Both the position numbers and the translations under genes were made by a program. Positions 25,948-54,210 of a DNA stretch of 64,000 nt are shown in pieces. The stretch is from Lunularia cruciata. Taxonomy: Eukaryota; Streptophyta; Marchantiopsida; Lunulariales; Lunulariaceae. How positions within the stretch are numbered: position 1 is the first letter of the stretch; every line of letters starts with the position of its first letter. Location of the stretch: positions 32,245,465-32,309,464 of the forward strand of contig OX419762.1 of the NCBI GenBank assembly GCA_948567375.1, in the 5' to 3' direction. The notes below the pieces were generated by a model that was given only the letters and a program-made list of their open reading frames with translations, searched no databases and was not told the DNA's origin.

Positions 25948-25954
25948 GATTTTT

Positions 25955-30700: not shown

Positions 30701-30769
30701 CAAGATTTGGAAATCAATGATCAGTTTCCTGATCAAGAGCTATATCATTTAATGGTTGTTTGAAGTACG

Positions 30770-32080
30770 AGGTATGTGGTAGAATATCACTATTTGCATA
30801 CGTCCCATTGTCCTAAGGGGCTGGACCCGGAACAAAGGGCAGTCTTCCTCCGGAAAATAGGACCGTACCAATTAAAACACAACATTTTGTTTAAAATGGG
30901 CGAAGATGAAGTACTTCGGAGATGTTTGGAAGCATACAAAGTCGGAGGAGTCATTGAATCTTTACACTCGGAAGCATCGGGAGGACACTCTGCCCTGAAA
31001 AATACGGTGAAGAAAATTCTGTAGGTAGGGTATTGGTGGCCTACGATGTATAAAGATACTCATGCTCATATTCGAAGTAGTGATGCCTATCAAAAGAATA
31101 GGGAAACCAACGGTGACTTCCCAATGGTCTTTGAAACTAATTTTGCCCCTGGCCCCATTTGAGAAATGGGGTATTGATTTTGTGGGTCCTATTCAACCAG
31201 TAACCCGTGTCATGAGGAAGAGGTACATCCTGGTATGTACCAATTATGCTACCAAAATGGTGGAAGTAGAGGCAACATGAAGAGATGATGCAGAGACAAT
31301 GGCAGAATTTTTCTTTTGAAACATCATCTCCCGATATGGGTGTCCTCTAGAATTGGTCAGTGATCGGGGAACTCATTTTTTGAGCTCAATGGTGGAAGCG
31401 TTAACCAAGTACTTCCAAATTAAACATTGGAAGACCACGCCTTACAACCCAAAAGCAAATGGACTCACGAAGAAGGCCAATGGATTGCTGTGCAAAATTT
31501 TGAATAAAGTGATAGTCAATTATGCCTATGACTAGGATACAAAGTTACCTGTAGCATTGTGGGCATATCAAACAACTGAAAAGATTACAACCAAGCAAAC
31601 TCCTTACTTCCTGACATACAGATTGCATCCCATACTACCAGTTGAATTTGAAGTACCGACATATCAAATTCTTTGTGAAGAACGCTTGTCAAAGGAAGAA
31701 AGCCAAGATCTTTGGATCCATCAACTAATGTGGTTGGAAGAGAAAAAGGATGATGCAATACAAACTACAAAGGAAATTCAAGAACAACAGAAGGTCAGGC
31801 ACAATAAAAGAATCAAACTTGTGGCTATTCAGGAGGGCAACTTGGTATTGTTATATGACAATTGCCGCATATGTTTTCTAGGAAAATTACATTTGAGGTG
31901 GATAGGGCCATATTGCGTGATGCACATATATGTTAATGGTTCTATTCAACTAGCAGACCTGGACAACAATCCTTCTGCAACTCACGTCAACGGTTGGAGG
32001 GTTAGAAAATATTGGACCCCAAACCCAACTTTGTATAAAAATCCGGTTGTCGGTGTTTGCGAGGATGCTCACATTTGAGG
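30770..32080 (+). pseudogene. B5 integrase, several key residues lost
   Basis: N-terminal zinc domain near 30950-31100: the two His are kept (HSEASGGH) but the C..C pair is degraded (SDAYQ in place of CDxCQ). Core: KWGIDFVGPI (first Asp, 31167-31196), LVSDRGTHF (second Asp, 31350-31380), then ANGLTKKAN near 31450-31485 where the catalytic Glu should be; it reads Lys. C-terminal: GNLVLLYD and LRWIGPYCV (31893-31920), ending WRVRKYWTPN (31995-32025) and a stop at 32077. No chromodomain. Stops at 31278 and elsewhere. Confidence 0.9.
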
Positions 32081-32085
32081 GGGTA
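32070..32085 (+). promoter_or_regulatory. B5 polypurine tract
   Basis: TTTGAGGGGGTA directly precedes the TGTGG start of the 3' LTR and overlaps the integrase stop codon. Confidence 0.8.
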
Positions 32086-35050
32086 TGTGGTGCCCACATT
32101 TTTGTTTTTCTTTTTTTATTAGTGTTTAAGAGAAGAAGTAAGCATTGGAAGCCAAATTACAGAAGAAGAATGGACGGAAGTGACTTTGGAGGACATCCAA
32201 AGAAGGCAACATCGGATCCGATAATGGAGGTACTCAAAAGACAAGTACAACGGAAAAAGTCTGAAGAGCACCATCTTTGGGTCGGAAGGCGTAGGTGATA
32301 TGAAGACCGTCTAACAACCTTGGTACGTGGCAAGAAAGTACACTTCAAGAAACGGCAAAGGCAGAAGAAGCATGTCTTGATAGTGACCGTACATCAACAC
32401 GCAGAAGAGAGGAGGTCAAATTTGAAATTGACTGAAGAATGACTGCATTTTGGGGTAATATAAGATTGCAATTCCGCAAGGACAAGTTGAATATGCCAAG
32501 TAAATTCCCAATTCCTTTTAGTAGTTGTCCTGCACTAATGCGTGTCCAGAAGCCAATTGAGAGTGAAATTTTCCAAAATCCCGAAGGGGTTAGAGTGTCT
32601 TGTCTAGGAGAGGGCATTATCTTTTAGTGTCATAGAACACGAGAGCAGATTATGGTGAACAAGGTCACAAATGCACTAGCGGTGCAAAGTTTCACAATTT
32701 GTAGGTTGGATGTAGTAGCCAAAATTGAAGTCTTGACTAGACTTTGAATTACATTTTTAGCATGGAACTGGAATTTCAGTTTCTCGGGAGTGATGGCAGA
32801 GATAGCTGCCAGTAATTGTGAGGAGGGTCCTGAAGTTGAAGGGAAGAGAGAAAATCTGGCTTGATGGACTGAGTTGGATTGGAGGTAAGTATTGGGGAAG
32901 GAAGTAGGAGAGCCGACGAGGATCACCTTCTACCGGAAGTGTGATGTTGTAGAAGAAACGATGGAAATTTGCACGCGTTCTTTGCTTCAAGAACTACAAA
33001 TGGCTACAAGGTGGAGTCCTATCGGGATCCAATTAAGAGAAGTATCATGGGAGCAATGATGGCCATGTTCAAGCTAGATCAAACAACGTATGTGAAGATG
33101 CAACAAGTGGTCTTCTTCCACCAGATGTTTGCAGGGGTTCCGGTGAATTGAGCAAAGTGTTTTCACCACCGAACAAGGCAGATGGTGATCACTTGGCAAA
33201 CAGGTTCTCCGCCGCATTATTTTGCACCGTTTGCAGCGCACTTCTACTTTGGGTTTCTGATAGTAGAGGAGCATGGGAAGTGGACAAAGAAGAGCGATAG
33301 TATATGATACACCTACAAGCCAACGATGATCATTTCTTGAAGACCGGACAGTGGAAGATAGAAGAAGTCACAAGTCCAATGACAAAGAAGCACAGTAAAC
33401 CCAAAGAAGCAAAGTCGCCTCCCGCTCAAAGGAAGACTCAAAGACTGGTTATGCAGAATACGAAGATGGTGAGAGAAGCATCATCGGAATCAGAGTCTGA
33501 AGAAGAAACCGAGTTGCAAGAGGAGGAATCCAAAGAAGAGGAGCTCACCTTAAAAAGTGAGGAGTCTAGAAGTGATAGCCAGGGGAAACCTGAGGTTCAG
33601 CAATCAATGGCAGTCAGTGAAGCTTGTCATGTGATGGTTGACATAGAACCTAGAACAACGAGTCATTGTGCAGCCATGGTGGTGAATAAGCAAAGACCAA
33701 AGGAGAAGGAGGAGTATCCAGCGGGGCCGAGTTCAATAGGTAAAGAAGAAGAAAGTGCATATACAGTGTCTTTGAAGATACAAAGATCGCGACTTTGGAT
33801 GAAGGAGCCGATGAAGGAGGTGAAGACTGAAGACGAAGACGGTGACAAAGATGAAGAAAGCTTTGGTGGGATATCATATCTGACGAAAGTGGTCACCCCG
33901 TTGCTAGAGCTGTAGAAGAGCATCGAAGGGTAAGTCCCCAAAATCATAGGAAGGGGATGAATGAGTTGCAGGTGGTGAAGCATCCGTTGAGTGAAGTGAA
34001 GGGGTCCAGGAGCAACAAGTCCAAAGAAATGAAGAAATTGAAGAACTTCAAAGGGAGGAAGTCTTGAAGAAGAAGACTTTCAAGATGTTACAAGAGAGCT
34101 GCAAGGTAAAAGAGAAAGAACTACAGAGGCAAGCCGGAGAATTAAAGGAGCAGGCAATGTGGCTGAGCAAAATGAAGGAAGAAGTGAGTGATTTGCGCAT
34201 TGAGAATGTTCATTTGAAGGCAATGACAATTGTAATGGAGCAGGAGTTGGACAGTTTGAAGAAGAGTGCAGCGGGGAAGGATCAAGCATGGCAGAGGGAG
34301 TTAGCAGCCAGGCAAGAAGAAGAAGAACGATTATGAGAGCTAGTCAGAAGTGTTGAGTTACAAAGAACACAGTATGCGGAGGAGAAGAAGATGCTCGTTG
34401 CGGAGTACAAAGACAAGCTGAAGATGTATTGTGAAGAACTGAAGGTAGAGCACTCTCGAGGATATGCGTTGGAATCAGTAGGAGAAGTTGCGAGGAAGTT
34501 GAGAGCAATCTTAAGCATGGAGGCTGAAGGGAGATTGGAAGAAGCCCACCTACATGAATTGAAGTTTCTTGTGCATGAAACTTGGAAGAGAAAAGCCAAA
34601 GATGTGGATATGAATACGTTGCTGATTTGATTGAGGGAGCGTGTAGACCGGAAGATGTTAGAAGTAGAAGATAATGTTAGTCTCACATTAGATTTAGTCA
34701 ATTCGGAGTTAGAGAAAATTTGGAATTGTGTGACAGTGGAGAGGAAACCCGATGTTGCAAAAGTAGGAATTCAAGTATCATCGGACTTATTATTAGACAC
34801 ATTAGGGAAGAGTGGGTTAGGAGATAGGGAGTTAGATCAGTCACTCCTTAGTGCAGTTGTAGTTCCTAGTGTAGAAGTAGTAGAATTTGTGAAGGAATTA
34901 GTAGAATTAGCTATACCCGAAGAAGGAGAAGTAGTAGGAAGATCATCGGGTTTGGAAGCCAATGATGAGGTAGACATCGGATTGGGATAAGTATTGATTT
35001 TGAGATAGGAAGAGGCAGATATGAAGAGATGGATTGTCAGTTTGGATCTG
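32086..35050 (+). repeat. B5 3' LTR, 3'-truncated
   Basis: Starts TGTGGTGCCCAC, matching the 5' LTR. It stops at 35050 (GGATCTG joined to A2 gag), so the final 740 bp present in the 5' LTR are missing. Confidence 0.92.
32490..34990 (+). pseudogene. LTR ORF of the B5 3' LTR
   Basis: More complete than its 5' twin. MPSKFPIPFSS (32494), ITFLAWNWNFSF (32750-32790), a segment with KLDQTTYVKMQQVVFFHQMF (33070-33130), HYFAPFAAHFYFG (33213-33255), an open acidic linker of 203 codons (33304-33915), coiled coil open at 34064-34336 and 34391-34630, and C-terminal tail open at 34631-34990 (119 codons) ending in VDIGLG. The tail is highly similar to that of the 5' LTR. No enzyme motif is visible; the coiled coil suggests self-association. 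Function not recognised. Confidence 0.75.
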
Positions 35051-35882
35051 TTCGGAATCAAAGGTTGCCCAATTCCATCGGTATTGGTCCACCCATGTGT
35101 GGCATTTTGCTCAATAATGTTGAGGTTGATCTTCTCCTTCACCTCCACCCAATGCTTCTGCTATTCTTTGCGCACAAGCAATGGCTTCAAATATTGTGCA
35201 AGGATTTTGCACCATGACTTCTTTGCAAATCCGCTCCTTTAACCTTTGTTTAAAATTGTTGAGAGCCTCTATTGGACTCATGTTGGTTATTGCAACTTGT
35301 AGATCCAGAAATACCTCCACATACTCTTGTATACTATTCTTTTGTCTCAATCCCCATACTCAGGTTTGAGCCATCTGCACAGAATCCACCGATTGGAAAT
35401 TCTTCAACAATCCTTCTTGCATTGCTGTCCACGTGACCTCTCTTCTCTTTGCCAACATGGATTGTTCCCAAGCATCATACCATGTGAGTGCTTTATCAGT
35501 CAAGTACCTACATGCAAACACGCCTCCAGCATGCTCGGTGATATTTGTTGAGAACAATGGGAAATATTGATTATTCTTGAGATCCAATTTTCCACCACTC
35601 TCATCATACACTGCCCCTTGTAAGGCTTGATGTTGCAGGTCTTCTTCATCCAGAGTAGCAATGTGGCTTCATTGTTGATAGGGTTCATAGGCACAAGTGC
35701 CTCTCCAAGTACTTTGGTCGTAGGTATTGGGTTTTGAGACGGCTCTTCTTCTTGCATGGCTTGATCGTTCCTGAGGATTTGCACTTAACTTTGTAATGTT
35801 TCCATGGTCATCTTAATCTCTCAAAATTCATTCAACATCCCTTCCATTCCTTGCACCAGCTCTTGCAATTGCGGATCCATGG
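35051..35882 (-). pseudogene. A2 gag
   Basis: Minus strand. Start Met at 35882 (MDPQLQELVQGMEGML). The core includes GVFACRYLTDKALTWYDAW (35450-35510), EGLLKNFQSVDSVQMAQT (35360-35415) and the helix IEALNNFKQRLKERI (35225-35270), ending AQRIAEALGGGEGEDQ near 35120-35165. Two segments are open (35360-35611 and 35111-35350). The 3' part of gag continues at 22765 on the far side of B5. Packaging protein; broken by shifts and the insertions. Confidence 0.88.
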
Positions 35883-36470
35883 TTCTTGCAACACTCAATT
35901 GCTAATGTCTACTTCAATATAGAGTCAATATGATCACTTTGGAAGGCGCACAAACTATTGGAACTACCATTGGGACCTCAAAAGCTATCACTCATTGATA
36001 ATACTCCTCACCAAAATTCCTAACCATAAAATCTCTAAACATCACTTTTGGTCTCACTACATAATGGATTTCTACTTGAGTGTTGAAAGGGAGAGAATTT
36101 GGGATATTCACATCCATATTATCATAATAGAATGTAGATTGTCAAATCCCACTCTCTGTCATATATCACCACAGGTAGAATCATAGGGTTTGGTCAGTTC
36201 ATCACCCTATCCATGAATTATGCGCCAAAGTGATAAACTAGCGATACTCTCATTTGCTCATGCTGGATGTACATAACCTTGGTGTGGAATGGATTTAGGA
36301 ATGGAAAGCTAGGTGTGGGAAATTGTCCTCCCGATGCATCCATCCCGTCTGCTCTCTAAAGTCCTTCCTAAGTCTAACAATTACTCTATGTTCTCCACCT
36401 CAAATTACTCAGTTTCAATAGTTCATGCTCTTCCAAGAGGAGTGATCCACTCTCTTGGACTAAGACAATC
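35883..36470 (-). other. A2 untranslated leader
   Basis: About 590 bp between PBS and gag, aligned with A1 2173-2770; no reading frame. Confidence 0.65.
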
Positions 36471-36482
36471 TCTTTGATACCA
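36471..36482 (-). promoter_or_regulatory. A2 primer-binding site
   Basis: Minus strand TGGTATCAAAGA, one base inside the 5' LTR, matching the initiator-Met tRNA site TGGTATCAGAGC at ten of twelve positions. Confidence 0.85.
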
Positions 36483-36483
36483 T

Positions 36484-37215
36484 AGTAATACTCCGAGGAC
36501 AAGAGAAGAGAGAAAAAAAAGATTACACACTCAACATTCGGTGCTCCAAAGGAGCACCTTCTCTTTATTATATAGACAAAGAGGATTCTCCTCCAAGGAA
36601 GCTCCACCATAGGATTAGGCACACAGATAGGTGACATGTCATCAAGCTCCACCCTTGGATTACTCTTTTGGATGGGTGACATGTCGGTCTAGGTCCTATC
36701 TGGTTGGTCAAACAAGCTTTGACTAGAGTGAATCTTTTGGGGAATCTTCCTGTAGGAGTCTTAGAATCACGTAAGGTACCATTGGAAAGCTCCCAATGAG
36801 ACAAACCAGGGGGAGGGGAGGTCAGCCTTTCCTCCATTGGGGGAAATTGTACACATTTTCAAGGCCTAATTCATACATTTAGGCCTCCAAAATTGCCTTT
36901 AAAGATTTCAGGCATATTTCAATTCCTACTCTATTAGTAGAAGTCCCCTTTTGGTGATTCCTCTTTCTGATCTGTTTAGTCCATCATGTGTAACATCCTT
37001 CTAGATGTTACCAGACCAATTCTCACCTTTAAATCTTATGTCTAGCTATTGGTTCTAAGGTTCTCAAGTCTATTTTGGTTTATGCTCTATTAGTAGAAGT
37101 ACTTTTTTGGTGATATTTCTATTTGATCTATTTTGACCATCATGTATAACATCATTCTAGATGTTACCTAACCAAATTTCATATCTAGATCATATGGCTA
37201 GCTCGTGGTATTACA
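36484..37215 (-). repeat. A2 5' LTR
   Basis: 732 bp, partner of 14728-15462, with the same internal tandem block. It ends GTGGTATTACA at 37215, followed by the TSD copy GTGGA. Confidence 0.92.
36541..36574 (-). promoter_or_regulatory. A2 LTR TATA box and adjacent hairpin
   Basis: The minus strand has TATATAA at 36568-36574 and, just downstream in the transcription direction, a perfect 7-3-7 inverted repeat GTGCTCC-aaa-GGAGCAC (36541-36557). The TATA box is shared by A1 (near 2887). Likely core promoter; the hairpin's role is unknown. Confidence 0.55.
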
Positions 37216-37220
37216 GTGGA

Positions 37221-37309
37221 GCTTAGTTGGTGTTGCCACTTGGTGGGGTACTTGTGGTTACAGTTTGTGGTTCCGGTTTGTGGTTGCAGTTGCAATTACT
37301 TTGTCACGA
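37221..37309 (+). other. D2 leader, last part
   Basis: Resumes the D2 leader after A2. It aligns with D1 10430-10510; GGTGGGGTACTTGTGG is shared. Confidence 0.7.
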
Positions 37310-38670
37310 CGGAGTTCATTGGGGATTCTAGAGGAGATTGAATCTGAGTTGGAGTTTGACACAGGAGCTGATTTAGTTGAGAGTGCACTTGGTGCGTCTA
37401 TACCATTGTTGTGGGACATGGACAAGATTTATGGGGCCTCCAAAGGCCCTAGGTGTTACTCTGGTACAATGGGTACCATTGATTTGGATGACTTCATCCA
37501 AGAGTTTGATAGTTGTTGTGATCTGCAGTGGACGCGGAACCCGACTTTTTTTATGCTCTTCATGGCATAGGGAGGAGTTGTTTGAGCATCTGGAGGGTCC
37601 ACCGATGGATGACTACCATGAGTTCAGGAGAGCTCATTTGGAAGAGATTGAGTTATGGAGACAATATTGGTCTCCGAAGTATGTCTTTATCACTTGAGGT
37701 TTGGTGGCCATGAGTAGATTGGTTGTACCTACGAGTTCTAGCTTGAGTAGTGTTGGTGGAGCTAGTGGAGGTGCACTAGTTGGAGATAGTGCTACTATGA
37801 GTGGAGGTACCACTGCAGGAGGTGGTGTGGTACCAAGGTTTAACCCCATGGTAGAGTTCTTCCAATGTTTGGGGCAGAACTACTAAGGAGTACGGACCAA
37901 CAAGCTGAGGAGCTTGCAAGAGTTCTAGTAGAAGGCTGGAAAGAGCCTACACGAGGCATACACTCGCATGAGGTGGCTAATCAATTTCACTCAGGGAGTT
38001 ACTGAGGCCCAGGCAGTCCAATTTTGGTATGGGATACTAGACAAGGAGTTGTGACGTAGAGTTTGTGATGCTACATTTTTACAAGCTACTTTGCCTACTT
38101 TGGCAATGGTCTTTGGTTTGGCTGAGCGTATTGAGCTCAACATGGTGGAGGAGAGGGTGGTGACATTTGGATTTGGTAGGGAGACCTCATCCACAACTAT
38201 TACTTCTTCCAGAGTGCAGCGTAGTGCACCATGCCCAGTTGGTTTTTGAGGACAGGGTGGACAACCCAAATCTTATGGAGCAAGTGGAGGGCCTAGTGGA
38301 GTTAGACCTTTACCTTCATTCTTGGATCAATAGTAGCCAGTGAGTAGTGGTGTTGCTTGTTGGACTTGTAGTGGACCTCACCATCAAAGAGAGTGTACTC
38401 AAGGCAATGGGCGTGATACCTTGGGTGCATCACAGCCAGCATAGAGGCAATGTGAGCATTGCCACAGATTTGGTCACACTAGTGACCGGTGCTTTGACCT
38501 ACACTTGGAGTTACGGAGTGGTAGGGCTGCTATGGCAGGTAATAGAGGAGTTCCAAATCAGGAGGACAAGGTGGTAGTAGAGGATCTACACCTAGTAGGT
38601 GTGCAGTACCAACCCTTACTTCTTATACAACTATGGCTACTTGGATTGAGCAGTTGGAGCAGAGATTGGC
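37310..38670 (+). pseudogene. D2 gag with two zinc knuckles
   Basis: Start uncertain. LLWDMDKIYGASKG lies at 37404-37445; then, after a frameshift near 37570, EELFEHLEGPPMDDYHEF (37575-37625) and EIELWRQYWSPKY (37643-37680). A Gly/Ser-rich stretch (37700-37840) precedes the gag core LHEAYTRMRWLINFTQGV (37950-38003) and ILDKEL. Near 38357-38395 is CWTCSGPHHQREC, and at 38446-38490 CEHCHRFGHTSDRC, a perfect CX2CX4HX4C. A Gly-rich tail follows. RNA-packaging role inferred. About a dozen stops. Confidence 0.85.
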
Positions 38671-39380
38671 TTGTATGGCTATCGCTTAGAGGAGATCAGA
38701 TTTGGGTGCTAAGGCTTCCACCACATATGCTGGTGATAGAGATGCTTTAGACTTCATGTGTGGAGCAACACAGGTGGATGCATCTGCAGCAGTGACTAGG
38801 AGTGCAGTACATGCTCCAGAGCGTAGAGGAGCATCAGTCAAGTTGGACCCAAAAAGAGGAGAGGTTGGAAGATAAGTCAGACTTACGTAGTCTTTCACAC
38901 TATCTGAGGCATTGTAGACGACATCCATGGCTCCTAGACGTCCCAGTGCAGGTGTGGTAGGTGGTGATGGAGTGCATGATGGACTACCTACTTGTCAGCC
39001 ACCTTCTACTACACAAATTGAGTCTAGCATGATGTTGGGGACGGCTTAGCTGATTATGTGTTGCCCTTTGTTTTCAACCAATGACATGTTTACATTGGGA
39101 GTTGACCTAACTCTAGTGTTCTGGTTGGTTGCCATGCTTTGTGAGAGTAGAGATGATGCAGTTCCTACTACTAGAGCAAAGGTGGTTGATAGTGGAGCTG
39201 ACTTGGTCAAGAAGCATGGGATCCGTTCAGCGACCAATGGTTTATGGCAAGCAGCAGCGGCTAGATTGGAGGAGTTGGCAACTAGACTGGAGGAGTTTCC
39301 AGCTAGACCGGCCTTTGAGAGAGCACGGTTCACACTTGGTGTTGTCCTATTGGATAACCAAAGGGGAATTTTCTGTCTGG
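38671..39380 (+). pseudogene. D2 gag-protease spacer
   Basis: Decayed coding stretch with short leucine/glutamate helices; from 39056 it is open for 152 codons and runs into the protease. The heptad-like RLEELATRLEEFPARP lies near 39270-39315. No known domain. The corresponding part of D1 is lost in the N gap. Confidence 0.6.
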
Positions 39381-39740
39381 TGGGACCTTTAGGGAAGGTC
39401 TATACACCCCAGAGAGTCTTGTTAGACTCTGGTGCACAACTCCTTATGTTGGGAAAGGCTGTAGATGTCAATCTGGAGTTACATAAGACCAATGAGGAGA
39501 GGTGTCTATTTTAGATCCAGACATCTCTAGGTGGTGGTTCGACATAGTACATCACACGTGGGGAGCTTGTTGTCCATGTTCAGCCTGGTCATCCGACTGA
39601 TAGCTCGGTGGTGAGAGCTCAAACTATTGCAACAATAGTTGAGTCATATGATGTGCTAGTTGGGGGAGCACTTTTATACCCCATGGGTTTTAGTATTGAC
39701 TATTGGGATGAGCCTCCTATAGACCAGGTTGGGAGTCTGG
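39381..39740 (+). pseudogene. D2 aspartic protease
   Basis: RVLLDSGAQLLMLGKAV at 39410-39465 is the canonical D-S-G-A active-site strand of a retroviral-type aspartic protease, with all three residues intact. YDVLVGGALLYPMGF near 39648-39690 is the equivalent of the conserved I-L-G-x-D/P strand near the C-terminus. It would cut the Gag-Pol polyprotein. Stops at 39513 and 39545 split it. Confidence 0.88.
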
Positions 39741-40120
39741 TGACGGACATGTATGTAGCCTAATAGTACGCTTCAGTAGTGGCAGTCTTGGCTCACTACA
39801 GTCCGAGACCATGGCAACATTAGTTTTAGCTTTCAATGGTGCAGTTACTTGGCCTGGTGACTTGTTGGAAGATTATGCCCATGCAGAGGATACTCTACTA
39901 CCAAAGGAGATCACTTGGATGTGGAGTATGAGTGGGATTATTCCATCCACCTTGGATGGAATAATTGAACCCCATTGTGGAGTTCAGAGGAGGCGTTGCA
40001 GCAACATGCAGATCAGTTGGTGCAATAGGCTTGGAGTGGAGCCTTTGTACCATCAAGAGATGAGTGTGAGGATGAGCCTCCAGAGTCAATTACTTTGACA
40101 CCTCTAGATACCACACTCAT
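39741..40120 (+). pseudogene. D2 protease-methyltransferase linker
   Basis: Coding remnant in which SNGAVTWPGDLLEDYAHAED and the EEALQQHADQLVQ helix (near 39985-40025) can be read, as also in D1. No known domain. It connects protease to methyltransferase without a stop signal conserved between the copies, which supports one polyprotein. Confidence 0.6.
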
Positions 40121-41120
40121 TGCTTGGTAATATCCAATAGAGGGGATATGTTTATTGGAGTTGTTTGGTAGGATTAGAACCGGACTAGCTGCGGTACTAT
40201 AGGTAGGTATACGAGTACAAAGGTACTTGTATGTAGAGAGAGATGAGACTGGTAGGCAATTCTCTCTACATCATGTGGCACACTTGGCCTATCGGTATCC
40301 AGAGTTATTGCCAATCTCAACAGTCAGAGGTTACCAAAAGGCTCTACTAGCAAACATTTCCTTACTAGGGGCGCATGATCTGGAGAGACATAGGTCTATT
40401 CACTTGGTGATTTCTAGATGGCCATGTTAAGGACATACATATGCAGGCCAAGTTTTGAGTCTTTAGGATCCTCATTCTTATGTGTTTTGGGAGATGTTAT
40501 GGATACTATGACATCTTTGGGTTCATCAATCCGTTTCTCCAGCTTACTTTTTGGAGAACATTCCTTTGATGGGTGATTCTTGCACCAGAGTGGTGGCGAG
40601 TACACATCAAGTCTATTCTTAGATATGACTTGCTGTATTGTCGGATGCACCTAGAGTGGGATCACGGGCTCATCATCTTTGTCTTTGGTGGACGAACCTC
40701 TTACCCATAGAGGTTTTACAACGTGCATATGATGGGATTCAGCAACTTGACCACATCCTTGTTGATGACATCTTGGATGTTGGGCATCAGTCTCAGATAG
40801 TGGTAGTGGCTGATAGGTCACCTATGGCAATGGTGAACGTAGTTAGACAACCTAGAGCCGCATTTCCCACACTCATGAGTTTCCCAAGCTCTCATGCTTT
40901 TCAAGAGGGAGGACTTGGACTTGTTGGGGACTCATAGTAACAACAGTTGGTGGAGCCCTACGCTGATGAGAGAGAGCGGGAGATGGATTTCCATACTGGT
41001 ATTACCATTGTTCTAGTAGTGTCAGAGGCATCTAGGCATCAGGTGTTAGGTCAAGCTATGGACCTTAACTATTTGACCTGGATTATGAGCCTTGGCTTGG
41101 CAGAGCAACGTAGGATGCAC
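40121..41120 (+). pseudogene. D2 cytosine-5 DNA methyltransferase domain
   Basis: A single frame runs about 330 codons with in-frame stops but no frameshift. It shows the C5-methyltransferase motifs in order: motif I LLELFGRIRTGLAAVL (near 40155-40200, SAM binding); motif II YLYVERDETG (40227-40257); motif IV HLVISRWPC then stop-GHTYAG (40401-40448), the Pro-Cys catalytic pair at 40422-40427 with the following Gln now TAA; VFWEML; motif VI PAYFLENIPLMGD (40540-40578), with the conserved Glu-Asn; motif VIII SRAHHLCLWWTN (40667-40700); and the C-terminal motifs IX/X (ADERERE ... ASRHQVLGQAMDLNYL, 40960-41075). The SRAH-xxxxWWTNL form and motif X resemble DNMT3/DRM-type enzymes more than DNMT1. 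It would transfer methyl groups to DNA cytosines. D1 has the same domain. Confidence 0.92.
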
Positions 41121-41500
41121 TTGATAGGCATCACCACTCAGACACTTGTGAGCCTCGTGCCTATCAAGATGATTCAAGCACATGCTGGGGGTGATGGACA
41201 AAGTGGACATGGTATTCTTGGGACATAGCCAGTAGCTACTAGGGAGAGTGGTCTACTTGGAGTCCATCCAGGTGAGCATGAGCTACTTGGATTACACCCT
41301 TGGTCCACTTGGGATGCAGCTAGAGGACATGTGGAGCCAGAGTGGAGCGAGTTTGTCACACAGAGGTTGGGACCTCTAGAAGTCGGGAGCATGACACTAT
41401 TGCTCCCAAGGGCCTAGTGAAGCAGCCAGTCAGTACGTCTTTCATTCCTACTACAGTTACAGAGGATACTTGGGAGCCAGATCTTGGACCCAAGCTTACT
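41121..41500 (+). pseudogene. D2 methyltransferase-RT linker
   Basis: Decayed coding region continuing the methyltransferase frame to 41228, then shifting. It aligns with 51011-51230 of D1, which is shorter. No known domain. Confidence 0.55.
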
Positions 41501-42440
41501 AGAGAAGAAAGATGTAGGGTTTGGAGGTTCTTGAGGAACCAAATGAGTTATTTTTCCTTCAGTATGAAGGATTTGGGTACTCTAAAGGGACTTGGTATAC
41601 AGATTGAGTTGACTAGCAATACACCAATTTTCTAATGTCCTTATTGATATAGGGATATGGAGAAGACATTGATTCAAAGCCAGAGTAGTGACCTTTTTGA
41701 GTCTAGTTTGGTGGAGATTTCACATGATGAGTATGCATCAATGATAGTGATGCCAGCCAAGAAGGATATGCATGGCAACTACACAAATAGGTGGATGTGT
41801 GGAGATTACAATTCTATCAACCAACAAACCAGGGCTGATTGATATGCCATGCCTACACTGGAGGAGATTTTTTATGCAATGGGCATGCAAAGATCTTCAA
41901 TACTTTGGATCTTAGAGCAGGATATCATTAGTTGCCAATCAAGGAGGAGGATTAGTCCAAGATAGCATTCTAGGCTATTGATACTCACGGCAAGAATGTG
42001 TTATATTAGTGGAGGTTCTTACCATTTGGGTTAAAGAACACTACTATTGAGTTCCAAAGTGTCATAGATAGGATCCTAGTTGGATTGGATTTTGCTTGGT
42101 GCTATACTGATGACATTTTGGTCTAGAGCACTTCTATGGAGGAGCATGAGAGATAGTTGTTGGAGGTGTTTGAGAGGTTGAGATCTCATGGACTCAAATT
42201 ACATCTTGGGAAGTGTAGGTTCTTCCACAAGCAGGTTGAGTATTTGGGTCAAACTATCTACCCCAGAGGACTTGGTGTTCAGTATACCAAGGTGGAGGCT
42301 ATTGCATGTATTCCTTGGCCTACAGATGTGAGCAGAGTGCGAGCATCTCTTGGATTGGCAAACTTTTATTGCCGCAATGTAAGAGGATTTAGTGTCATTG
42401 CCAAGGCCTTGATGAAGCTAACCAAGCTTACACATGAGTG
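41501..42440 (+). pseudogene. D2 reverse transcriptase
   Basis: LKGLGIQIELTSNTPIF (41583-41635), YASMIVMPAKKDMHGNY (41732-41780), MCGDYNSINQQT (41796-41830), FNTLDLRAGYH (near 41895-41930), RFLPFGLKN (42014-42040), the catalytic WCYTDDILV (42095-42120; Ile of YIDD changed to Thr), then HLGKCRFFHKQVEYLGQTI (42202-42260) and SLGLANFYCRNVRGFS (42346-42395). A typical gypsy RT; the C-terminal 99 codons are open. Dead through shifts and stops. Confidence 0.92.
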
Positions 42441-42900
42441 GTGTTGGAGAGATTAGCAAGAGAGAGCTTTTGTAGAGCTCAAGGAGAATTTGACATCTGC
42501 TTCTATTTTGAGGAGACCGATCAGAGGACAACCATTTCAGGTTCATACTGATTGGAGTATGTTGGGGCTTGGAGCGGTGCTCACTCAGCATGATGATGAG
42601 GGAAAGGAGTTTGTGGTGGCCTATGCTAGTCGTTCCAACAATTCAGTGGAGGCTAAGTAAAGTTCATATGAGGGAGAGTGCCTGGCAGCAGTTCAGGCAG
42701 TAGCACATTTCAGATGTTACCTACTTGGTAACCCCTTCACTCTCATCACTCATCATCAACCGCTGAAGTAGTTGATAGAGGCTTACAAGCTTTAAGGGAA
42801 GCTTGCATGATGAGCCCTGATTTTATAGGAGTATGATTTCACAATTGTTCACTGACCTGGAGTGGTGAACCGTGATGCAGATGGGTTGAGTAGAAACCCA
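42441..42900 (+). pseudogene. D2 RNase H
   Basis: FQVHTDWSMLGLGAVLTQ (42535-42590) with the first Asp, SSYEGECLAAV (42661-42693) with the Glu, LITHHQPLK (42745-42770), in which the third Asp position reads His (intact LIIDYQPLK in D1), and VNRDADGLSRNPC (42865-42902) with the last Asp. Multiple stops. Confidence 0.9.
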
Positions 42901-44300
42901 TGTCCCAGCCAGCAAGATCAGACCAGAGCACATTGGCATGGTGAGATAGATGAGGAGATGGTGCCAGGTTGGCATGCATCTGCCTTTCTATGTATATTTT
43001 TTAAGGCTTTGGTGGTATCTCTCTCAGTGCATCCAGGAGGAGTTATTGAGGTCATAGATCCAAAGAGTGAAGAGATAGGTACAATTCAGCAAGACATTCA
43101 CGATGATGTCTAAGTGATAGACTATCTTTGCACTGGTGTTGTGGGTGGCACAATTAGGGCCAAGGAGAGAGATTGTGTTCTTCAGCAAGCCAACGGTTCA
43201 CATTGGAGTGCAAACACCTTTTGCATGTATGGGAGGATGGTAGAGTGTGAGTAGTACCACTTCCATCTCAAAGAGCATAGTTGGTCCGTCATGCTCATGA
43301 GGAGCTAGGACATTTTGGAGTAAAGATTACATATAGCTTACTTCAGAGTCATTATTGGTGCCACAATATGCAGACCAAGGTACAACAGTTTGTTGCTAGA
43401 TGTGTGGTTTGTGACCAAGTTAGAGCATCATTCAATGCTCCTACGCCACAATTACACCCATACACCCACAGTTACACTGCCACAGTTACCTATCATGGGA
43501 TTGGGTTACCATTGGAATTTGGACTTTGCTGAACCTTTACCGCTAACTGTGAGACATCATTGGTATGTCTTGGTGATGGTGGAGCACTTTTCCAAGTGGA
43601 TTGAGTTGGTGGTACTTCTTGACAAGTCTAGTGAATGAACAACTTACTTTTTCATGGATCAAGTTCTTAGTCATTTTGGTGCACCAGCTGAGGTTTTGAC
43701 TGATCAGGGTATAGAGTTCTTGGAGGAGTTTCAGGTCTTGTGTGACAAGGCTTTGATTGATCATCATACTACATCCCAAGATCACCCTAAGGTAGATGGC
43801 TTAGCATAGAGAGTGGTTCATATGATGAAGAGAGGATTACAAAAGTATGGTTTGTAGAGAGGCCACTTGGGAGATTGGGATCTCCAATTACCTTGGTTGG
43901 CCATGAGCTATTGATCCAGCCGGCAAGCCTCCTTAGCATCCTTCTCTTCTTACCTCCTACTCTATGGACAAGATCTAGATTTACCTACAGCCATTTGTCA
44001 AGATGCAACTGTAGTTTTGGACTTGGATGACCCAGATGTATGGATGAGTGCATGTTCTCAACGGGCAGCAATCTTTCAAAGAGTGATGCCGATGGCCTTT
44101 GAGAACTTGGCGATTGCTTAGCATAGAGATACTTTATGTTGCCCTACCATTTGAGGAGGAGGTTATAGACCCTCCATCTATCGATTTCATCCAGGAGACT
44201 ATGTATATCTACAGCAAACAACACCAATGACACTTGATGTTTCAGTAGGCCCCACTATCTTGAGAGTGCGTGAGGTTTTGCCATGTAGAGTCCTTGTGTT
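42901..44300 (+). pseudogene. D2 integrase
   Basis: A WHGEIDEEMVPGWH tether, then the HHCC zinc domain AHEELGHFGVKITYSLLQ ... CVVC (43291-43415) with all four ligands. Core: HWNLDFAEPL (43513-43540, first Asp), LTDQGIEF (43697-43720, second Asp), HPKVDGLA-stop-RVV (43783-43820), where the catalytic Glu position is a stop codon. WDLQLPWLAMSY and LLYGQDLDLPTA follow (43880-43995); GDYVYLQQTTPM near 44190-44228 is the integrase C-terminal SH3-like start. A DDE integrase, not a tyrosine recombinase. Confidence 0.9.
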
Positions 44301-44415
44301 TGAAGGACATGATGGTATTGTTTGGAAGGATCATGTGCACAATTGTGTGCCATGCCACCTTCCAAACATTGATGGTATGGACCCAAGCTTGGCACATGTA
44401 CATGCGGGCTTGAGG
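44301..44415 (+). pseudogene. D2 integrase tail before PHD finger
   Basis: Open in the frame of the PHD finger: VLVFEGHDGIVWKDHVHN then CVPCHLPNIDGMDPSLA. It completes the integrase C-terminal fold and leads into the finger without a stop. The same words recur in D1 (54075-54205). Confidence 0.75.
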
Positions 44416-44556
44416 TGTATGTTATGTGGCTCTTTAGATGGAGCTACTACTATGTTAGTGTGTGATAGTTGTTTGAGAGGATGGCATATGGCATGTATGA
44501 CTACTCCTTTCATGGTGGTTCCTCAAGGATAGTGGCTATGTCCTAGATGTACTTGA
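44416..44556 (+). pseudogene. D2 PHD finger at the pol C-terminus
   Basis: CMLC, 11 residues, CDSC, LRGW, H, MA, C, 14 residues, WLCPRC, then ACT and the stop TGA (44554-44556). This is the C4-H-C3 PHD-finger spacing, with the conserved Trp two residues before the seventh Cys. The same frame is open from the integrase tail (44227) through the finger to a single premature TAG (44530-44532, Gln in D1). PHD fingers read histone H3 tails, so it could target integration as chromodomains do. D1 carries the same finger. Confidence 0.92.
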
Positions 44557-44726
44557 CCTATAGCTAGTTCATTTTTTATATGGTATAGATTGCAGACAGC
44601 CGACAAACGATGGGCTCCATAGCACCCGGCCTCCTGATCTTTGCCCATCAAAGGGCATACCATATACTTGGAGTACGTGGCTATCTGGAGTTAGAGGGAC
44701 CTAACTGCCAGCTAGGGAGGCAATTA
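44557..44726 (+). other. D2 3' untranslated region with polypurine tract
   Basis: No reading frame. It ends with AGCTAGGGAGG (44710-44720), purine-rich and immediately before the TGGCAC start of X1; D1 has AAGCTAGGGGATGA in the same place. This is where second-strand priming would start, so the retroviral-type LTR is expected to begin at X1. Confidence 0.65.
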
Positions 44727-45389
44727 TGGCACTTTAGAATTTATGTATGACTTATGTGTGAGTTGTGCTTCTAAATTGTATGGTGTTGACAGTAATGTAT
44801 ATTTTGTAGCAATGTATATATGCATGACAGCTGTCTCAATATTTGTAGTGTCGCATCTAGATTGCTTGGACATTGGAGTTGCAATGATAGTAGTTAGAGT
44901 TATTTCAGCAATTTCTTGGAGACTACTTTTTGACGGTCAGATTTCATGTTTGGTGTACTGACTTTACGATGGGGCCCCCATCAATTTGCACCATTTGCAC
45001 CATCAAGTGTGTCGTTAGCAGGACCATTAGGGTTTCAAAATGCTCAAGTCCAGGGGTATACTTTCAAAGTGCAGCTCTAGAGAGCTCACTTCTTTGATGT
45101 TGAGCCTTTGAGTTCTTGGCTATGGTAGACAGATGCCGGCAAGCGTCACCTGCATTCTCTTAGCTAGAGTGGGTGTGGCTTGACTATGACTATTATCAAT
45201 GCCCGGTTGTTGGCAATTTATAGAGTGACAATCAAGTACTGATCTAAGTTGAGTTGATTTGAGAGTTGTAAACAATTTGATTATTATGGCACTTTAGAGT
45301 CTATGTATGACTTATGTGTGAGTTGTGCTTCTATAGTGTATGATGTTGATAGTGATGTATATTCTATAGCAATGTATATATGCACAACA
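44727..45389 (+). repeat. D2 3' terminal array X1-L-X2
   Basis: X1 44727-44831 (105 bp, starts TGGCACTTTAGA), L 44832-45283 (452 bp, same length as the 5' L), X2 45287-45389 (103 bp, starts TGGCACTTTAGA). X1 and X2 are near-identical. The element's outer end is X2, while its 5' outer end is L. A standard LTR of this family would be X+L (TGGCAC ... GATTACA, about 557 bp). Confidence 0.88.
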
Positions 45390-45493
45390 CCCTTCTTCTC
45401 CTTCCAATGCCATTTGGGTTCAATATGACTTTGTCTATACACTTCTTCTTCAAAATTGCACAGAAACTCAAAAAAAAAAATATGGGTACCACA
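45390..45493 (-). repeat. B3 LTR, second part
   Basis: 104 bp ending TATGGGTACCACA, the family B LTR terminus. It is the continuation of 12136-13031 on the other side of D2; D1 resumes at 45494. Confidence 0.88.
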
Positions 45494-45830
45494 TTTATAC
45501 ACCATAGAGTGCCTTATTAGACTTTGGAGCGTAGCCTCTTCTGTTGAGGAAGGTTGTAATTTTTGGTCTGGAGCTACAAAAGACCAATGTGAAGAGGTGT
45601 CCATTTTAGATCCAGACATCTCTAGGTGGTGGTTTTACACAATACATCACATGTGGAGAGCTTGTTGTTCAGATTCAGCCCGGTCATTTGATTGATAGCT
45701 TTGTGGTGAGAGCTCAAGCCATTGTGACTATAGTTGAGTCATATGAGGTGTTAGTTGGAGGAGTAGTGGTATACTCTCTGGGTTCCAATATTGACTATTG
45801 GGAGGAGACAACCTCCTATAGACCATGTTG
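45494..45830 (+). pseudogene. D1 protease remnant
   Basis: Starts at the point equivalent to D2 39400 (TATACACC). The active-site segment is degraded (TLERSL in place of VLLDSG); SYEVLVGGVVVYSLG near 45738-45783 matches the C-terminal strand. Recognised only by alignment with D2. Confidence 0.7.
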
Positions 45831-46205
45831 GTAGTGAGGTGACGGAAAAGTATGTCACCAACTAGTATGCATCAATAGTGGGAATCTTGGCTCACTACAG
45901 TCCAAGAGCATGGCAACTTCAATTTCAACTATAAATGGTTTGTTACTGGGCCTGGTGACTTGTTGGAAGGGAACACCCATGTAGATGATACTCCAATACC
46001 AGAGGAGATCACTTGGATTTGGAGTATGGTGGGATTGTTCCATCTACCTTGGATGTTCCTTTGTGGAGTTCAGAGGAGGCATTGCAACAACATGCAGATT
46101 AGTTGGTGCAAAAGGCTTGGAGTAGAGCATTTGTACCACTAGGCAACCAATGTGAGGATGAGCCTCCAAAGCTGATTACCTTGACACCTCTAGATACCAC
46201 ACTCA
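45831..46205 (+). pseudogene. D1 protease-methyltransferase linker
   Basis: Aligned with D2 39741-40120; GPGDLLEGNTHVDDTPIPEE and the EEALQQHAD helix region are recognisable. Confidence 0.6.
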
Positions 46206-46680
46206 TTGCTTGGTAGTATCCAATAGAGGGAGTATATCTATTGGAGTTATTTGGTGGGATTAGCACTAGACTAGCTACCGTACTACAGGCGGGTATATGA
46301 GTATAAAGATACTTGTATATGAAGAGAGTTGAGACTATTAGGGAAGTCTCTTTACATCATATGGCACACTTGGCTTATTGGTATCCTGAGTTATTACCAA
46401 TGTGAGTAGTTAGGGGTTGCTAGAAGATCCTAGTAGATATTTCCTTGTTGGGAGCACAAGATTTGGAGAGACATGGTCCCATTTATTTGGTGATTTTTGG
46501 ATGGCCATGTTAGGGATATACACACGCTACTTGAGGTTTGGGTCTTTAGGATCTCCTTTCTAGTGTGTTTTGGGAGATGTTACATATACTATGATATCTC
46601 CAAGTTCATCAATTTTTTTCTCCAACTTACAATTTGGAGAACTTTCCTTTGATGGGTGATTCTTGCACCCGAGTGGTGGC
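46206..46680 (+). pseudogene. D1 DNA methyltransferase, N-terminal part
   Basis: Same domain as D2: motif I YLLELFGGISTRLATVLQAG (46230-46292, closer to the expected G-G-I than D2), motif II region YLYMKRVET (46311-46340), motif IV YLVIFGWPC-stop-GYTHA (46476-46525) with the catalytic Cys kept and the next Gln as TAG, and motif VI NLENFPLMGD (46633-46664). B6 is inserted right after this, between motifs VI and VIII. Stops are more frequent than in D2, consistent with greater age. Confidence 0.88.
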
Positions 46681-49600
46681 TGTGACAACCCGAAAAATAT
46701 CACTTTTGCAATAATCAAGTAAGTAAAGTTTGTTCCCATAGAGATACTGATCACAAATGTCCAAATACAAAGCAAATAGTAACAATCTCAATTCTTCTTG
46801 GTTGCATTTTAATCTTTCAAGTAGAAACCACCCAGAAGAGAGAAACAAGCACTGCTCACTATCTCGTCACACAAATATGTCACACTTAATCACAACTCCA
46901 TCATATCTTTCGAAACAATCTTGATGATTCAATCTCTCCCAAAAATGGCACTTCACTACAAAACAACTTCACCTCAAAATTTTGTTCCACCCCTCCAATG
47001 AAGGCACAACTTCCTCGATCAAAATTGCTTCACATCAACTCAGCACTACACTCACAACTGTAAGATACTACCAACACTACAATTACTCTCAAATCTGTCA
47101 AAGCATTGCTCTAATTGCACTTTACTCAAGATCAAACACATACAATGAAGATCAAGGCTGCGGAATCCAACATCCAACATGCACACTAACTTGCACTTCA
47201 GAATTCTCCAAACACTTACAAACACACACACAAAATTGATACTCAGAATTAAGCTCAAGCAACAAGCACTGAAATCAACACTTCTCTTTATCTATTCTTA
47301 GGAATAATGAATAATGCAATAGCATACTGAAAATGCCTCCTTTAATTGTCAAGATATCAACAATTATCTAACTTCTTAAAGTACTTCCTAACAACTTTAC
47401 CAACTTGCAAATCCAAAATTACAATACACCTCTTCTTATCTGCCCTTCAAGATCTAGAATTTTTTACTACTCCAATCCAATGTCTACTTCCTCTTCCTCC
47501 TCCTCTTCCAAACCCAAAGAATACCCCTTCATCTCCTATACTTTGGGTCTATCTAATTCTACTAAGTCCTTTGCTATTTCTGTTACTTCTTCATTGTAGA
47601 CTACAATTGCACTAGTAGGTAACCTATCTAACTCTATATATTGCAACCCACTCCTCTCTAATGTCTCAAATGACAACTCTGAAGATATTTATACTCCTAC
47701 TTCCTCTACTTCATATTTCACTCTTACATCCTTCCAAAGTTTATCTACTTCTAACTGAGCTAAATCTAATCTAATTGCGATATTGTCTTTTACTTCCAAT
47801 ATCTTCTTATCTACACAAGTTTTGGGACTAATCAATAAAGCATTCAAATCCTTATCCTTTGCATTTCTTTGCCTCATCTCATGCACTAAAAATCTTAACT
47901 TGTGCAACCTTGTTTTTTTCAATTCTTATATTGGCTTTAGTACTTAGCATTGCATTCATCTTCACTATTATCTCCTTCAATGGCTTGAGCCTCATCCTTC
48001 TCTCACGTTCCTGATCCGCCTGCCAGTCTTCCCAATACATTGCCAGCTCTACCTTAAATTTGGCCTTCACATTCTCCTTCTCTTTCTACACTATCTTCTC
48101 TTCTAGATTACAAAGTAGCTCCCGCAATCTTTCTTCCTCTCTATACCGCACTGTTAACACTCGTTGCCAAAGATGCTTCTTCTCTTCTACACTCTGCATC
48201 ACTCTATTGAGTTCTTGCTCCTTCTTTGCTACCCTTGCCATAGCATGGATGATTTCTAATTGAGAATCAGCAAACTGTTGCTTCAAGATTTCATACTTAG
48301 CTATATGTCTTTCCTTGGCTATGACATTCTGCTCTATTACTCTATCTTTACCCCCCACTTCTCTCTTTAAATTTTCAATCAACTGATTCTGTACTACTAC
48401 ATCTACTTGTAGTATCTCCATTTGCTCCTCTCCTTGGGTTATCCTCTCCTTCAACTCCAAATTTTCTTCTTCTAACCATGCCAGCACGTGCAATGCAGTT
48501 TTTACTTCAGGATACTATCTACATTTCTTTCCTCTTCTCCTCCAACTTCATCAGCAACGGGCAGACAATCTCTTGTAGATACTCTACCCCTCCAGTCTGG
48601 TTCCCTTCTGCTTGTGGGCTTTTCTCCTTCTTTGCCTCTTCTTTGCCTAACATTCTTCTCCTCAATCGGAGTTGCCTTATTAGAATTGATTTCTTGCTCC
48701 CCAAACTCTCACTTTCCATTTCTCTTCTTCAACTTGGCCCCGCTTCATACATCACACTTCTTCTTGAACAGATACCTCTCTGAATGATTACCTTCTTCTC
48801 CAATTTCTCTAGAACTTCCTCTTCTTCTTTCTTGTTATCTTCATCTGCTATCTCTAGCTTTCCCTCTTCTCCCTTTAGTACCGGCTGCATCTTCACTCTG
48901 TCCTCACTCTCACTACTTGCTTCACCATTCTGCAACATGAGTTTGGGTTCCTCTTCTCTCTCCAAGTCTTCTAACTTGTACTTGGCCTCACCTTTTGATT
49001 CTTCCTCTCACAATGCTATTACCACCATGTCCTTCTTTGGGTTCACTTTCCTGGTCTTCCATGGTCTTGTAGCCACCACTTCTTTGTTAGGTTGACTCCT
49101 CTTCTTTGACTTTGGAGCAATCATTGCCAATCTCACACTCTACCCCATTTGTGTAGTACTCATCACTGTTTCTAATCTAAAGAATGTATTGTTGCTTGTT
49201 CATATCAACATCTCTCCTCAAGTCAGGATGGAAGGGTGACACCATCTTGTGTCATTTTGCTGCATTCAACAGATTCAATCCCAAGTAAAAATGGGCTGAA
49301 AATGGCACAATGTAGTGTGGAGGTGTCTTATCTTGTAAATTCCACACCATTTGTCTTGTGCATTGATGAGAGCACTTTGCCCAATTAATTGGTTCCCCTA
49401 CAAACATCTTATGGAAAAACACCGCTTGGTATTTCATCACATAAGTTGTTTGCTCTGGCTTGAAGATGGTCATCATTGCTCCTACAATGCTTCTCCTCAT
49501 AGGGTCCTTATATTTCTTGATCTTATATTCATTATTTGTGCATTTTGAAGAAAAGGCTTCTTGTACTTCCAAGGTTTCTTCAGCTACCTCTCCTCTCCCC

Positions 49601-52815: not shown

Positions 52816-52819
52816 GACC

Positions 52820-54205: not shown

Positions 54206-54210
54206 TGAGG

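What the first reader, a model, noticed from the sequence alone, without database searches (positions are those of the whole stretch)
40121..41120. A gypsy retrotransposon family that encodes a cytosine-5 DNA methyltransferase inside pol
Seen: in D2, between protease and RT and in one frame without frameshifts, the C5-methyltransferase motifs occur in order: LELFGRIRTGL (I), YVERDE (II), VISRWPC + former Gln (IV), FLENIPLMGD (VI), SRAHHLCLWWTN (VIII) and ERE...LGQAMDLNYL (IX/X). D1 has the same domain in the same place (46206-46680 and 50462-51010), so it is a family trait. Known: cytosine methyltransferases captured by retrotransposons have, as I recall, been reported from charophyte algae and dinoflagellates (de Mendoza and colleagues, 2018). 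I know of no description in a vascular plant. Inference: the enzyme could methylate the element's own new cDNA, to mimic host chromatin or to tune silencing.
Basis: partly seen in the sequence, partly recalled or inferred. Interest (0 to 1): 0.96.

Follow-up and report, generated by a model that had tools for sequence, protein, structure and literature searches.

The report
Bryophyte retrotransposon carrying a DNA methyltransferase
A copy-and-paste jumping gene, old and broken here but present in thousands of copies in the same (probably liverwort) genome, carries its own DNMT3-like DNA-methylating enzyme and a histone-reading finger; such elements were known from algae and dinoflagellates and had been stated to be absent from land plants.

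Summary
Window 40134-41111 is a decayed but complete C5 DNA methyltransferase domain: a profile built without the window matches 326 of 326 positions (E 2.7e-133). D1 holds the same domain. Best profile and fold matches are DNMT3. D2 is 13032-45389 (TSD CCCT), nested in D1.

It is a family trait. Relatives occur in Marchantia, Riccia, Calypogeia and Sphagnum. The window's own genome has 1,974 recognisable family junctions and about 4,500 PHD sites.

Young copies show more: ORF1 is Gag-protease-DNMT, ending at UAG-CARYYA, the tobamovirus leaky-stop signal (1,613 of 1,974 junctions; also in the distant L029). ORF2 is RT-RNaseH-integrase-PHD finger. Ends are A-coding-B-A-B, as reported for Klebsormidium KnitGypsy-Dnmt3.

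So this is a land-plant branch of a known kind; new are the hosts, the leaky stop that would give the enzyme Gag-level dosage, and the PHD finger. The 'vascular plant' premise fails: all 22 named relatives are bryophytes. Enzyme activity was not testable, selection tests within the genome were inconclusive, and none of the ten copies read at length had a fully open ORF2 in my reading.

The parts
40134..41111 (+). D2 DNMT3-like C5-methyltransferase domain, decayed, one frame
   Evidence: Profile of relatives, E 2.7e-133, positions 1-326 of 326
13028..13031 (.). D2 target-site duplication, left (CCCT)
   Evidence: Same four bases at 45390-45393
13032..13481 (+). D2 repeat A1 (left end of the element)
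   Evidence: Match to A repeats of own-genome copies
13482..14727 (+). D2 leader and first part, before the interruption
   Evidence: Match to own-genome copies
14728..37227 (.). Stretch that interrupts D2 (other nested elements, not dissected)
   Evidence: Gap in the match to own-genome copies
37228..39800 (+). D2 gag and protease region (protease motif near 39415-39440)
   Evidence: Match to own-genome copies; tblastn of L029 ORF1 38936-39712
41420..41428 (+). Site of the ORF1/ORF2 junction in D2, decayed
   Evidence: Aligned by the flanking words to the junctions
41432..44550 (+). D2 RT, RNase H, integrase and PHD region, with frameshifts and stops
   Evidence: tblastn of L029 ORF2 residues 11-1034, 45-52% identity
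44416..44550 (+). D2 PHD finger
   Evidence: PF00628 E 5.1e-9
44723..44829 (+). D2 repeat B1
   Evidence: Repeat of 45283-45389
44832..45283 (+). D2 repeat A2
   Evidence: 82.7% to 13032-13481
45283..45389 (+). D2 repeat B2 (right end)
45390..45393 (.). D2 target-site duplication, right (CCCT)
9107..11935 (+). Probable 5' part of D1 (A1 remainder, leader, gag), upstream of nested D2
   Evidence: Match to own-genome copies, 71-78%; assignment to D1 inferred from the nesting
45496..46680 (+). D1 protease end and first part of the DNMT domain (domain from 46220)
46681..50462 (.). Later insertion in the D1 DNMT domain
   Evidence: Break in the D2-D1 match
50463..51226 (+). D1 second part of the DNMT domain (to 50977) and what follows
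51231..54348 (+). D1 RT to PHD region, in pieces (51231-52121, 52816-53358, 53357-54348)
54211..54345 (+). D1 PHD finger
   Evidence: tblastn with the D2 C-terminal reading, 76% over 109 residues
54515..55145 (+). D1 repeats B1-A2-B2 (right end)

Best explanation
D1 and D2 are old, dead copies of a Ty3/Gypsy-type retrotransposon family of bryophytes. Younger copies encode ORF1 = Gag, zinc knuckles, protease and a DNMT3-like C5-methyltransferase; then a UAG-CARYYA stop; then, in the same frame, ORF2 = RT, RNase H, DDE integrase and a PHD finger. The ends are A-coding-B-A-B and insertion makes 4-base target duplications. Shown by sequence: domains, order, stop signal, repeats, duplications. Inferred: most ribosomes stop at the UAG, so the methyltransferase is made in Gag-like amounts as part of the particle protein, while a minority read through to make RT-IN-PHD; the enzyme methylates the element's own double-stranded cDNA before or at integration; the PHD finger tethers the integrase complex to histone H3 tails.
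For: Domain. Host spread and the place after protease and before RT in relatives. Own genome: 111 scored, near full-length matches at 72-74% identity. Leaky stop: 28 of 30 copies, 1,613 of 1,974 junctions genome-wide, and a different CARYYA hexamer in L029. PHD: D2, D1, L029, 10 of 10 copies read at length. Repeats and 4-base duplications. Long-term constraint on the DNMT: four-fold sites saturated while second positions differ at about 0.30.
Against: D2 alone gives no PF00145 hit. Within-genome tests of selection do not discriminate. None of the seven long-read copies that I could follow from the junction has ORF2 open to its end (open for 211-841 codons), so a fully open copy was shown only in L029. 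No activity, readthrough or histone-binding data exist here. Self-methylation should also attract silencing.
Confidence: 0.8

Rival explanations
1. One old capture: this is the same family by descent as KnitGypsy-Dnmt3 of the charophyte Klebsormidium, so the enzyme was captured once in a streptophyte ancestor. (A rival to a separate capture in bryophytes; compatible with the mechanism above.)
For: Same Gypsy domain set, same DIRS-like A-coding-B-A-B repeat order and an unpermuted, divergent DNMT3-related domain, as in the text and legend of de Mendoza 2018; our own copies show these. All retro-DNMTs that I placed, with deep unnamed branches, form one clade (100/99).
Against: No K. nitens protein appears among the 96 homologue rows, and I had no K. 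nitens sequence to place in a tree. That paper calls its case an independent acquisition in the K. nitens lineage.
Confidence: 0.6
2. The enzyme acts mainly in trans, on host DNA or on competing elements or viruses (silencing rivals or tuning host silencing), and not on the element's own cDNA.
For: A domain made at Gag-like level could be abundant in the cell (inferred from the stop). An opinion paper proposes an antiviral role for transposon methylases (passages of PMC6338049).
Against: The domain lies inside the Gag polyprotein, which is expected to go into particles (recalled for Gag proteins in general). No data on targets.
Confidence: 0.15
3. The domain is a structural or DNA-binding passenger, no longer a methyltransferase.
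For: Motif IV is not PCQ in 2 of the 13 relatives of A2 (P0012, P0029); within-genome selection tests are flat.
Against: PCQ is kept in 11 of 13 and in L029, and the domain is constrained over a span that saturates four-fold sites.
Confidence: 0.08
4. ORF2 is reached by reinitiation, splicing or a separate transcript, and UAG-CARYYA is incidental.
For: Readthrough was not observed. Some Marchantia gene models splice across this region (for example P0087, P0090).
Against: ORF2 continues in the same frame as ORF1 after the UAG; the hexamer is CARYYA in two lineages with different letters (CAATCA in L029; CAGCCA and others in the own genome).
Confidence: 0.2
5. A host gene fragment present only in these two copies.
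For: D2 alone has no PF00145 hit.
Against: 111 scored near full-length matches in the genome and relatives at the same place in other bryophyte genera.
Confidence: 0.01

Closest known systems
KnitGypsy-Dnmt3 of Klebsormidium nitens (de Mendoza et al. 2018, PMC5890265; abstract, section 9 and passages seen)
   Same: Gypsy domain set with an unpermuted, divergent DNMT3-related domain in the polyprotein; DIRS-like A-coding-B-A-B repeats
   Different: Host is a bryophyte; thousands of copies; a PHD finger ends ORF2 (the word PHD does not occur in that paper's main text); DNMT closes a Gag-PR ORF before UAG-CARYYA. The figure and supplements of that paper were not seen, so the last two could be shared.
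SymbioDIRS-Dnmt3 and SymbioLINE-Dnmt of dinoflagellates (same paper)
   Same: Retrotransposon-borne DNMTs; SymbioDIRS has a Dnmt3-type domain and A-coding-B-A-B repeats
   Different: Tyrosine-recombinase (DIRS) or LINE elements; ours has a DDE integrase (rve)
DNMT3A/3B catalytic domain and plant DNMT3/DRM
   Same: Best PDB profile and fold matches are DNMT3; motif order I-IV-VI-VIII-IX-X
   Different: About 20% identity; longer domain; PCQ rather than PCN in motif IV; unlike DRM the order is not permuted
Chromoviruses (Gypsy elements with a chromodomain after integrase)
   Same: A histone-reader type module at the end of integrase
   Different: PHD finger, no chromodomain found by Pfam in L029 ORF2
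Tobamovirus-type (type I) leaky stop, UAG-CAR-YYA (PMC3542737, passages)
   Same: Same stop and hexamer class
   Different: Lies between Gag-PR-DNMT and RT of a retrotransposon; readthrough itself untested

Membership tests
C5 DNA methyltransferase (PF00145), DNMT3 type | Ordered motifs I, IV, VI, VIII, IX/X, not permuted | tested here: met
C5 DNA methyltransferase (PF00145), DNMT3 type | PF00145 above cut-off in the window's own copy | tested here: not met
   D2: 0 families at E 10
C5 DNA methyltransferase (PF00145), DNMT3 type | PF00145 match in less decayed relatives | tested here: met
   30 of 37 members of A1, D2 included among the 37
C5 DNA methyltransferase (PF00145), DNMT3 type | Closer to DNMT3 than to DRM, DNMT2 or bacterial enzymes | tested here: met
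   PDB profile: DNMT3A 5.4e-19; DRM2 7.7e-7 (4onj, named only DNA methyltransferase, 3.5e-9; recalled as a DRM); HhaI 7.2e-4. The 50 Foldseek rows listed are DNMT3A/3B/3C entries. In the tree the retro clade is sister to DNMT3 and DRM together, so it is DNMT3-like, not nested in DNMT3
C5 DNA methyltransferase (PF00145), DNMT3 type | Methylates cytosine | not testable with these tools
   Needs an assay
KnitGypsy-Dnmt3 | DNMT3-related domain in the polyprotein of a Gypsy element | tested here: met
KnitGypsy-Dnmt3 | A-coding-B-A-B repeats | tested here: met
   9 of 9 copies in which A1 was found, one of them in tandem form
KnitGypsy-Dnmt3 | Common descent with the K. nitens elements | not tested
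   No K. nitens sequence in hand
KnitGypsy-Dnmt3 | Purifying selection on the DNMT among copies of one genome (Ka/Ks < 0.2 in that paper) | tested here: inconclusive
   0.37 in frame against 0.40 in a control frame; single against shared variants p 0.25; long-term constraint against L029 is clear
Ty3/Gypsy | PR-RT-RNaseH-IN order with a DDE integrase | tested here: met
   tblastn order in D2
Ty3/Gypsy | Short target-site duplications (4 bases) | tested here: met
   7 of 8 untandemed copies exact, 1 of 8 three of four, read by eye; D2 exact
Ty3/Gypsy | Identical full LTRs at both ends | tested here: not met
   Left end A only, right end B-A-B
DIRS | Tyrosine recombinase | tested here: not met
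   Integrase core rve and H2C2 instead; no recombinase among the Pfam matches of L029
DIRS | Split direct repeats | tested here: met
Chromovirus | Chromodomain after integrase | tested here: not met
   PHD there instead
Type I (TMV) stop-codon readthrough | UAG followed by CARYYA, with an open frame beyond | tested here: met
   28 of 30 copies; 1,613 of 1,974 junctions; L029
Type I (TMV) stop-codon readthrough | Readthrough product made | not testable with these tools
   Needs a translation assay

The most novel reading that the evidence does not exclude
A mobile element with its own chromatin writer and reader: a leaky UAG sets the ratio between a Gag protein that ends in a DNMT3-like methyltransferase and a rarer RT-integrase-PHD protein. 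The particle would carry its own methylating enzyme and deliver pre-methylated cDNA to H3 tails chosen by the PHD finger (its PDB relatives by sequence include UHRF1, CHD4, AIRE and KDM5; that most of these read unmodified H3 is recalled).
Probability: 0.3. Interest if true: 0.88.

Novelty: new variant of a known kind. Interest (0 to 1): 0.72.

Why it matters
An element that may methylate itself seems to invite silencing, so its spread to thousands of copies is a puzzle for the view that methylation only suppresses transposons. [quoted passage not shown] bryophytes contradict the wider form of that statement. Marchantia, a model plant, has annotated relatives, so enzyme activity, methylome effects and the leaky stop can be tested directly. 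The family also lets one ask whether the enzyme was captured once in streptophytes.

Tried and rejected
D2 alone against Pfam and NCBIfam: no DNMT hit. IMG/VR: one scan without a match, one with 28 loci; nine of the 28 served as phage-type outgroups, picked by me. The genome-contig scan gave one relative, L029, a contaminant contig in a cyanobacterial bin. D1-D2 and within-genome dN/dS: rejected as tests because control frames gave similar values. Single against shared variants: not significant (the script stopped with an error before the CpG-free RT rows). IN and PHD rows were misframed; dropped and redone. The pattern was mis-spaced (1 match) and replaced. The count of a DNMT 31-mer did not complete, so the number of DNMT-bearing copies is known only through junctions and scored matches, and DNMT-less young copies were not looked for. 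Vascular-plant host: rejected for lack of any named vascular-plant relative. Host-fragment reading: rejected. Not done: comparison with K. nitens sequence, the second AlphaFold job, Rfam.

Full report
WHAT IS THERE. Alone, the decayed reading has no PF00145 hit and only a weak motif-I match to DNMT3A in the PDB (E 1.1). Against 5.8 billion proteins it has 81 matches at E up to 10 among 1,626 candidates (best E 2e-124, 63% identity, weakest 3e-11). A longer query scored on the same domain adds 15. A profile of 11 of these relatives, none from the window, matches D2 over 326 of 326 positions (40134-41111, E 2.7e-133) and D1 in three pieces; 200 codon shuffles reach at most 1.7 bits against 437.

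WHICH ENZYME. 30 of the 37 members of alignment A1 (D2 among them) hit PF00145. A profile of A1 ranks DNMT3A first in the PDB (5.4e-19), far ahead of DRM2 (7.7e-7) and HhaI (7.2e-4); an entry named only 'DNA methyltransferase' (4onj, recalled as a DRM) has 3.5e-9. An AlphaFold model of the L029 domain (pLDDT 84) has DNMT3A, 3B or 3C entries in all 50 Foldseek rows listed, out of 1,077 matches; TM by target 0.72-0.79 for chains that hold the catalytic domain only. The order of motifs is not permuted. Motif IV is PCQ in 11 of the 13 relatives of A2, PCN in DNMT3A; a gene of the same genome that I read as host DNMT3 also has PCQ (L030). In a 24-row tree the retro-DNMTs form one clade (100/99) beside host DNMT3-like, host DRM and human DNMT3A (94/89) and apart from nine phage-contig enzymes. 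The branch to the retro clade is long (1.29) and DRM and two other rows are flagged as long, so the donor is not resolved.

WHO CARRIES IT. 22 of the 96 rows bear organism names: Marchantia polymorpha, M. paleacea, Riccia sorocarpa, Calypogeia fissa and three Sphagnum species. None is a vascular plant, none is Klebsormidium. In a tree of 70 domains D2 falls among these without a supported neighbour. The RT of an unrelated element in the window has Marchantia paleacea as its only named match (76% identity over 66% of the query; 25 rows at E up to 1e-30). The window's genome has 566 Mb in 74 contigs. Lunularia cruciata is reported at 580 Mb with bursts of Ty3/Gypsy (passages of PMC9985172). I infer a liverwort host, perhaps Lunularia; this is not proven.

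THE FAMILY IN ITS OWN GENOME. A protein search scored 111 matches, each covering query residues 3 or lower to 366 or higher of 368, at 72-74% identity, out of 13,363 first-look candidates; by hand count 66 of 111 have no stop inside the match. These are the best-scoring copies, so that share is biased upward. In 29 equal-length copies the domain is 97.0-99.5% identical between copies. Ten copies were read at length: 10 of 10 have the RT-to-PHD region (61-66% identical to L029 ORF2) and a PHD motif at its end. In 7 of 10 the first in-frame stop after the start of the DNMT match is the junction UAG; the other three have earlier stops. From that UAG the frame stays open for 211-841 codons in these seven, short of the roughly 1,040 of ORF2, so none of them has a fully open ORF2 in this reading. 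Only L029 shows both ORFs open. The A repeats of 9 of the 10 copies could be paired and are 96.5-99.1% alike, so these insertions are young. D2's A repeats are 82.7% alike and those of D1, if its left part is rightly assigned, 82.0%, so the window's copies are old. Family words with up to three mismatches: RT 3,756 places, PHD 4,503 places; reversed-pattern controls 0.

LEAKY STOP. In 28 of 30 copies ORF1 ends, 104-105 codons after the matched domain, in UAG followed by CARYYA, and the frame goes on beyond it; one copy has CAGCCT and one is out of frame. Genome-wide, 1,974 places share the two flanking words at the right spacing; 1,613 of them (82%) read UAG-CARYYA; control 0. L029, about 50% different in the DNMT protein, has UAG-CAAUCA, another CARYYA. 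The consensus UAG-CAR-YYA and its use by tobamoviruses I read in passages of PMC3542737. Some gene models of relatives also end soon after the DNMT (P0083, P0084, P0085), as such a stop would give; others are spliced across (P0087, P0090). That readthrough occurs is inferred.

PHD FINGER. D2 44416-44550 matches PF00628 (5e-9), D1 keeps it, L029 has it (4e-10). Its PDB relatives by sequence include PHF12, CHD4, UHRF1, KDM5A/B, PHF21A and AIRE. That most of these read unmodified H3 is recalled; binding here is untested.

ENDS. In the nine copies with an A1 found, the left end is repeat A (TGTCACGC) and the right end B-A-B (GCACGACA); one of the nine is a tandem form. Read by eye, seven of the eight untandemed copies have an exact 4-base target duplication (in two of them after moving the computed B2 edge to the shared end); the eighth matches in three of four bases. 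D2 has CCCT on both sides, lies inside D1, and is itself interrupted at about 14728-37227. The legend of Fig. 4 in de Mendoza 2018 says the K. nitens element has the repeat structure of DIRS with Gypsy domains; the order A-coding-B-A-B is spelled out there for SymbioDIRS.

SELECTION. Between four own-genome copies and L029, four-fold sites differ at 0.73-0.76 (saturated) while DNMT first and second positions differ at 0.39-0.40 and 0.29-0.30, protein identity 51-53%. RT-RNaseH, IN and PHD behave alike. So the domain was under constraint in the long term. Tests inside the genome do not discriminate: dN/dS 0.37 in frame, 0.40 and 1.81 in the other frames; D1-D2 0.52 in frame, 0.38 and 1.15 in the others; single variants 64 N to 40 S, shared 19 to 19, p 0.25, and p 0.09 without CpG.

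LITERATURE. De Mendoza 2018 (abstract, section 9 and passages) described the charophyte and dinoflagellate cases. A 2025 survey (passages of PMC12344493) cites it for streptophytes and dinoflagellates. A 2019 opinion (passages of PMC6338049) states absence from land plants. The liverwort genome paper has no word beginning with methyltransferase or DNMT in its main text. My ten searches listed no paper that I recognised, from titles and abstract beginnings, as describing a bryophyte or vascular-plant DNMT retrotransposon, its PHD finger or its leaky stop. Only open-licence full texts are held, lists were capped at 10 to 40 papers, and supplements were not seen.

VERDICT. A real domain in a real family: a known kind of element in new hosts, with two features of which I found no description.

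Noticed in passing
   Followed up: yes
13028-45393: D2 is a whole element with target duplication CCCT, nested in D1 and itself interrupted by about 22 kb of other elements.
   Followed up: partly
L075 4800-6363: Three A repeats in tandem at spacing 557 (A plus B), a tandem form of the right end.
   Followed up: no
61848-63817 (-), 27089-32078 (+), 16046-18448 (-): Other Gypsy-type elements with RT and integrase matches to L029 ORF2 at 22-37% identity; the first has a 257-residue open stretch 76% like Marchantia paleacea.
   Followed up: partly
L030, L031, L033: Host methyltransferase exons in the same genome: two that read as DNMT3-like with PCQ (L030, L033) and one with DRM-type permuted order (L031).
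   Followed up: partly
L029 1-9285: A relative with both ORFs open sits on a contig binned as a Synechococcales cyanobacterium: surely eukaryotic contamination of that bin; the ends overlap by 127 bases.
   Followed up: partly
P0076, P0078, P0079: Deep sister branch of the retro-DNMTs, known only from metagenomes (host unknown); P0078 runs on into an RT-like start.
   Followed up: no
11936-12135: A run of 200 N inside the probable D1 gag region.
   Followed up: no
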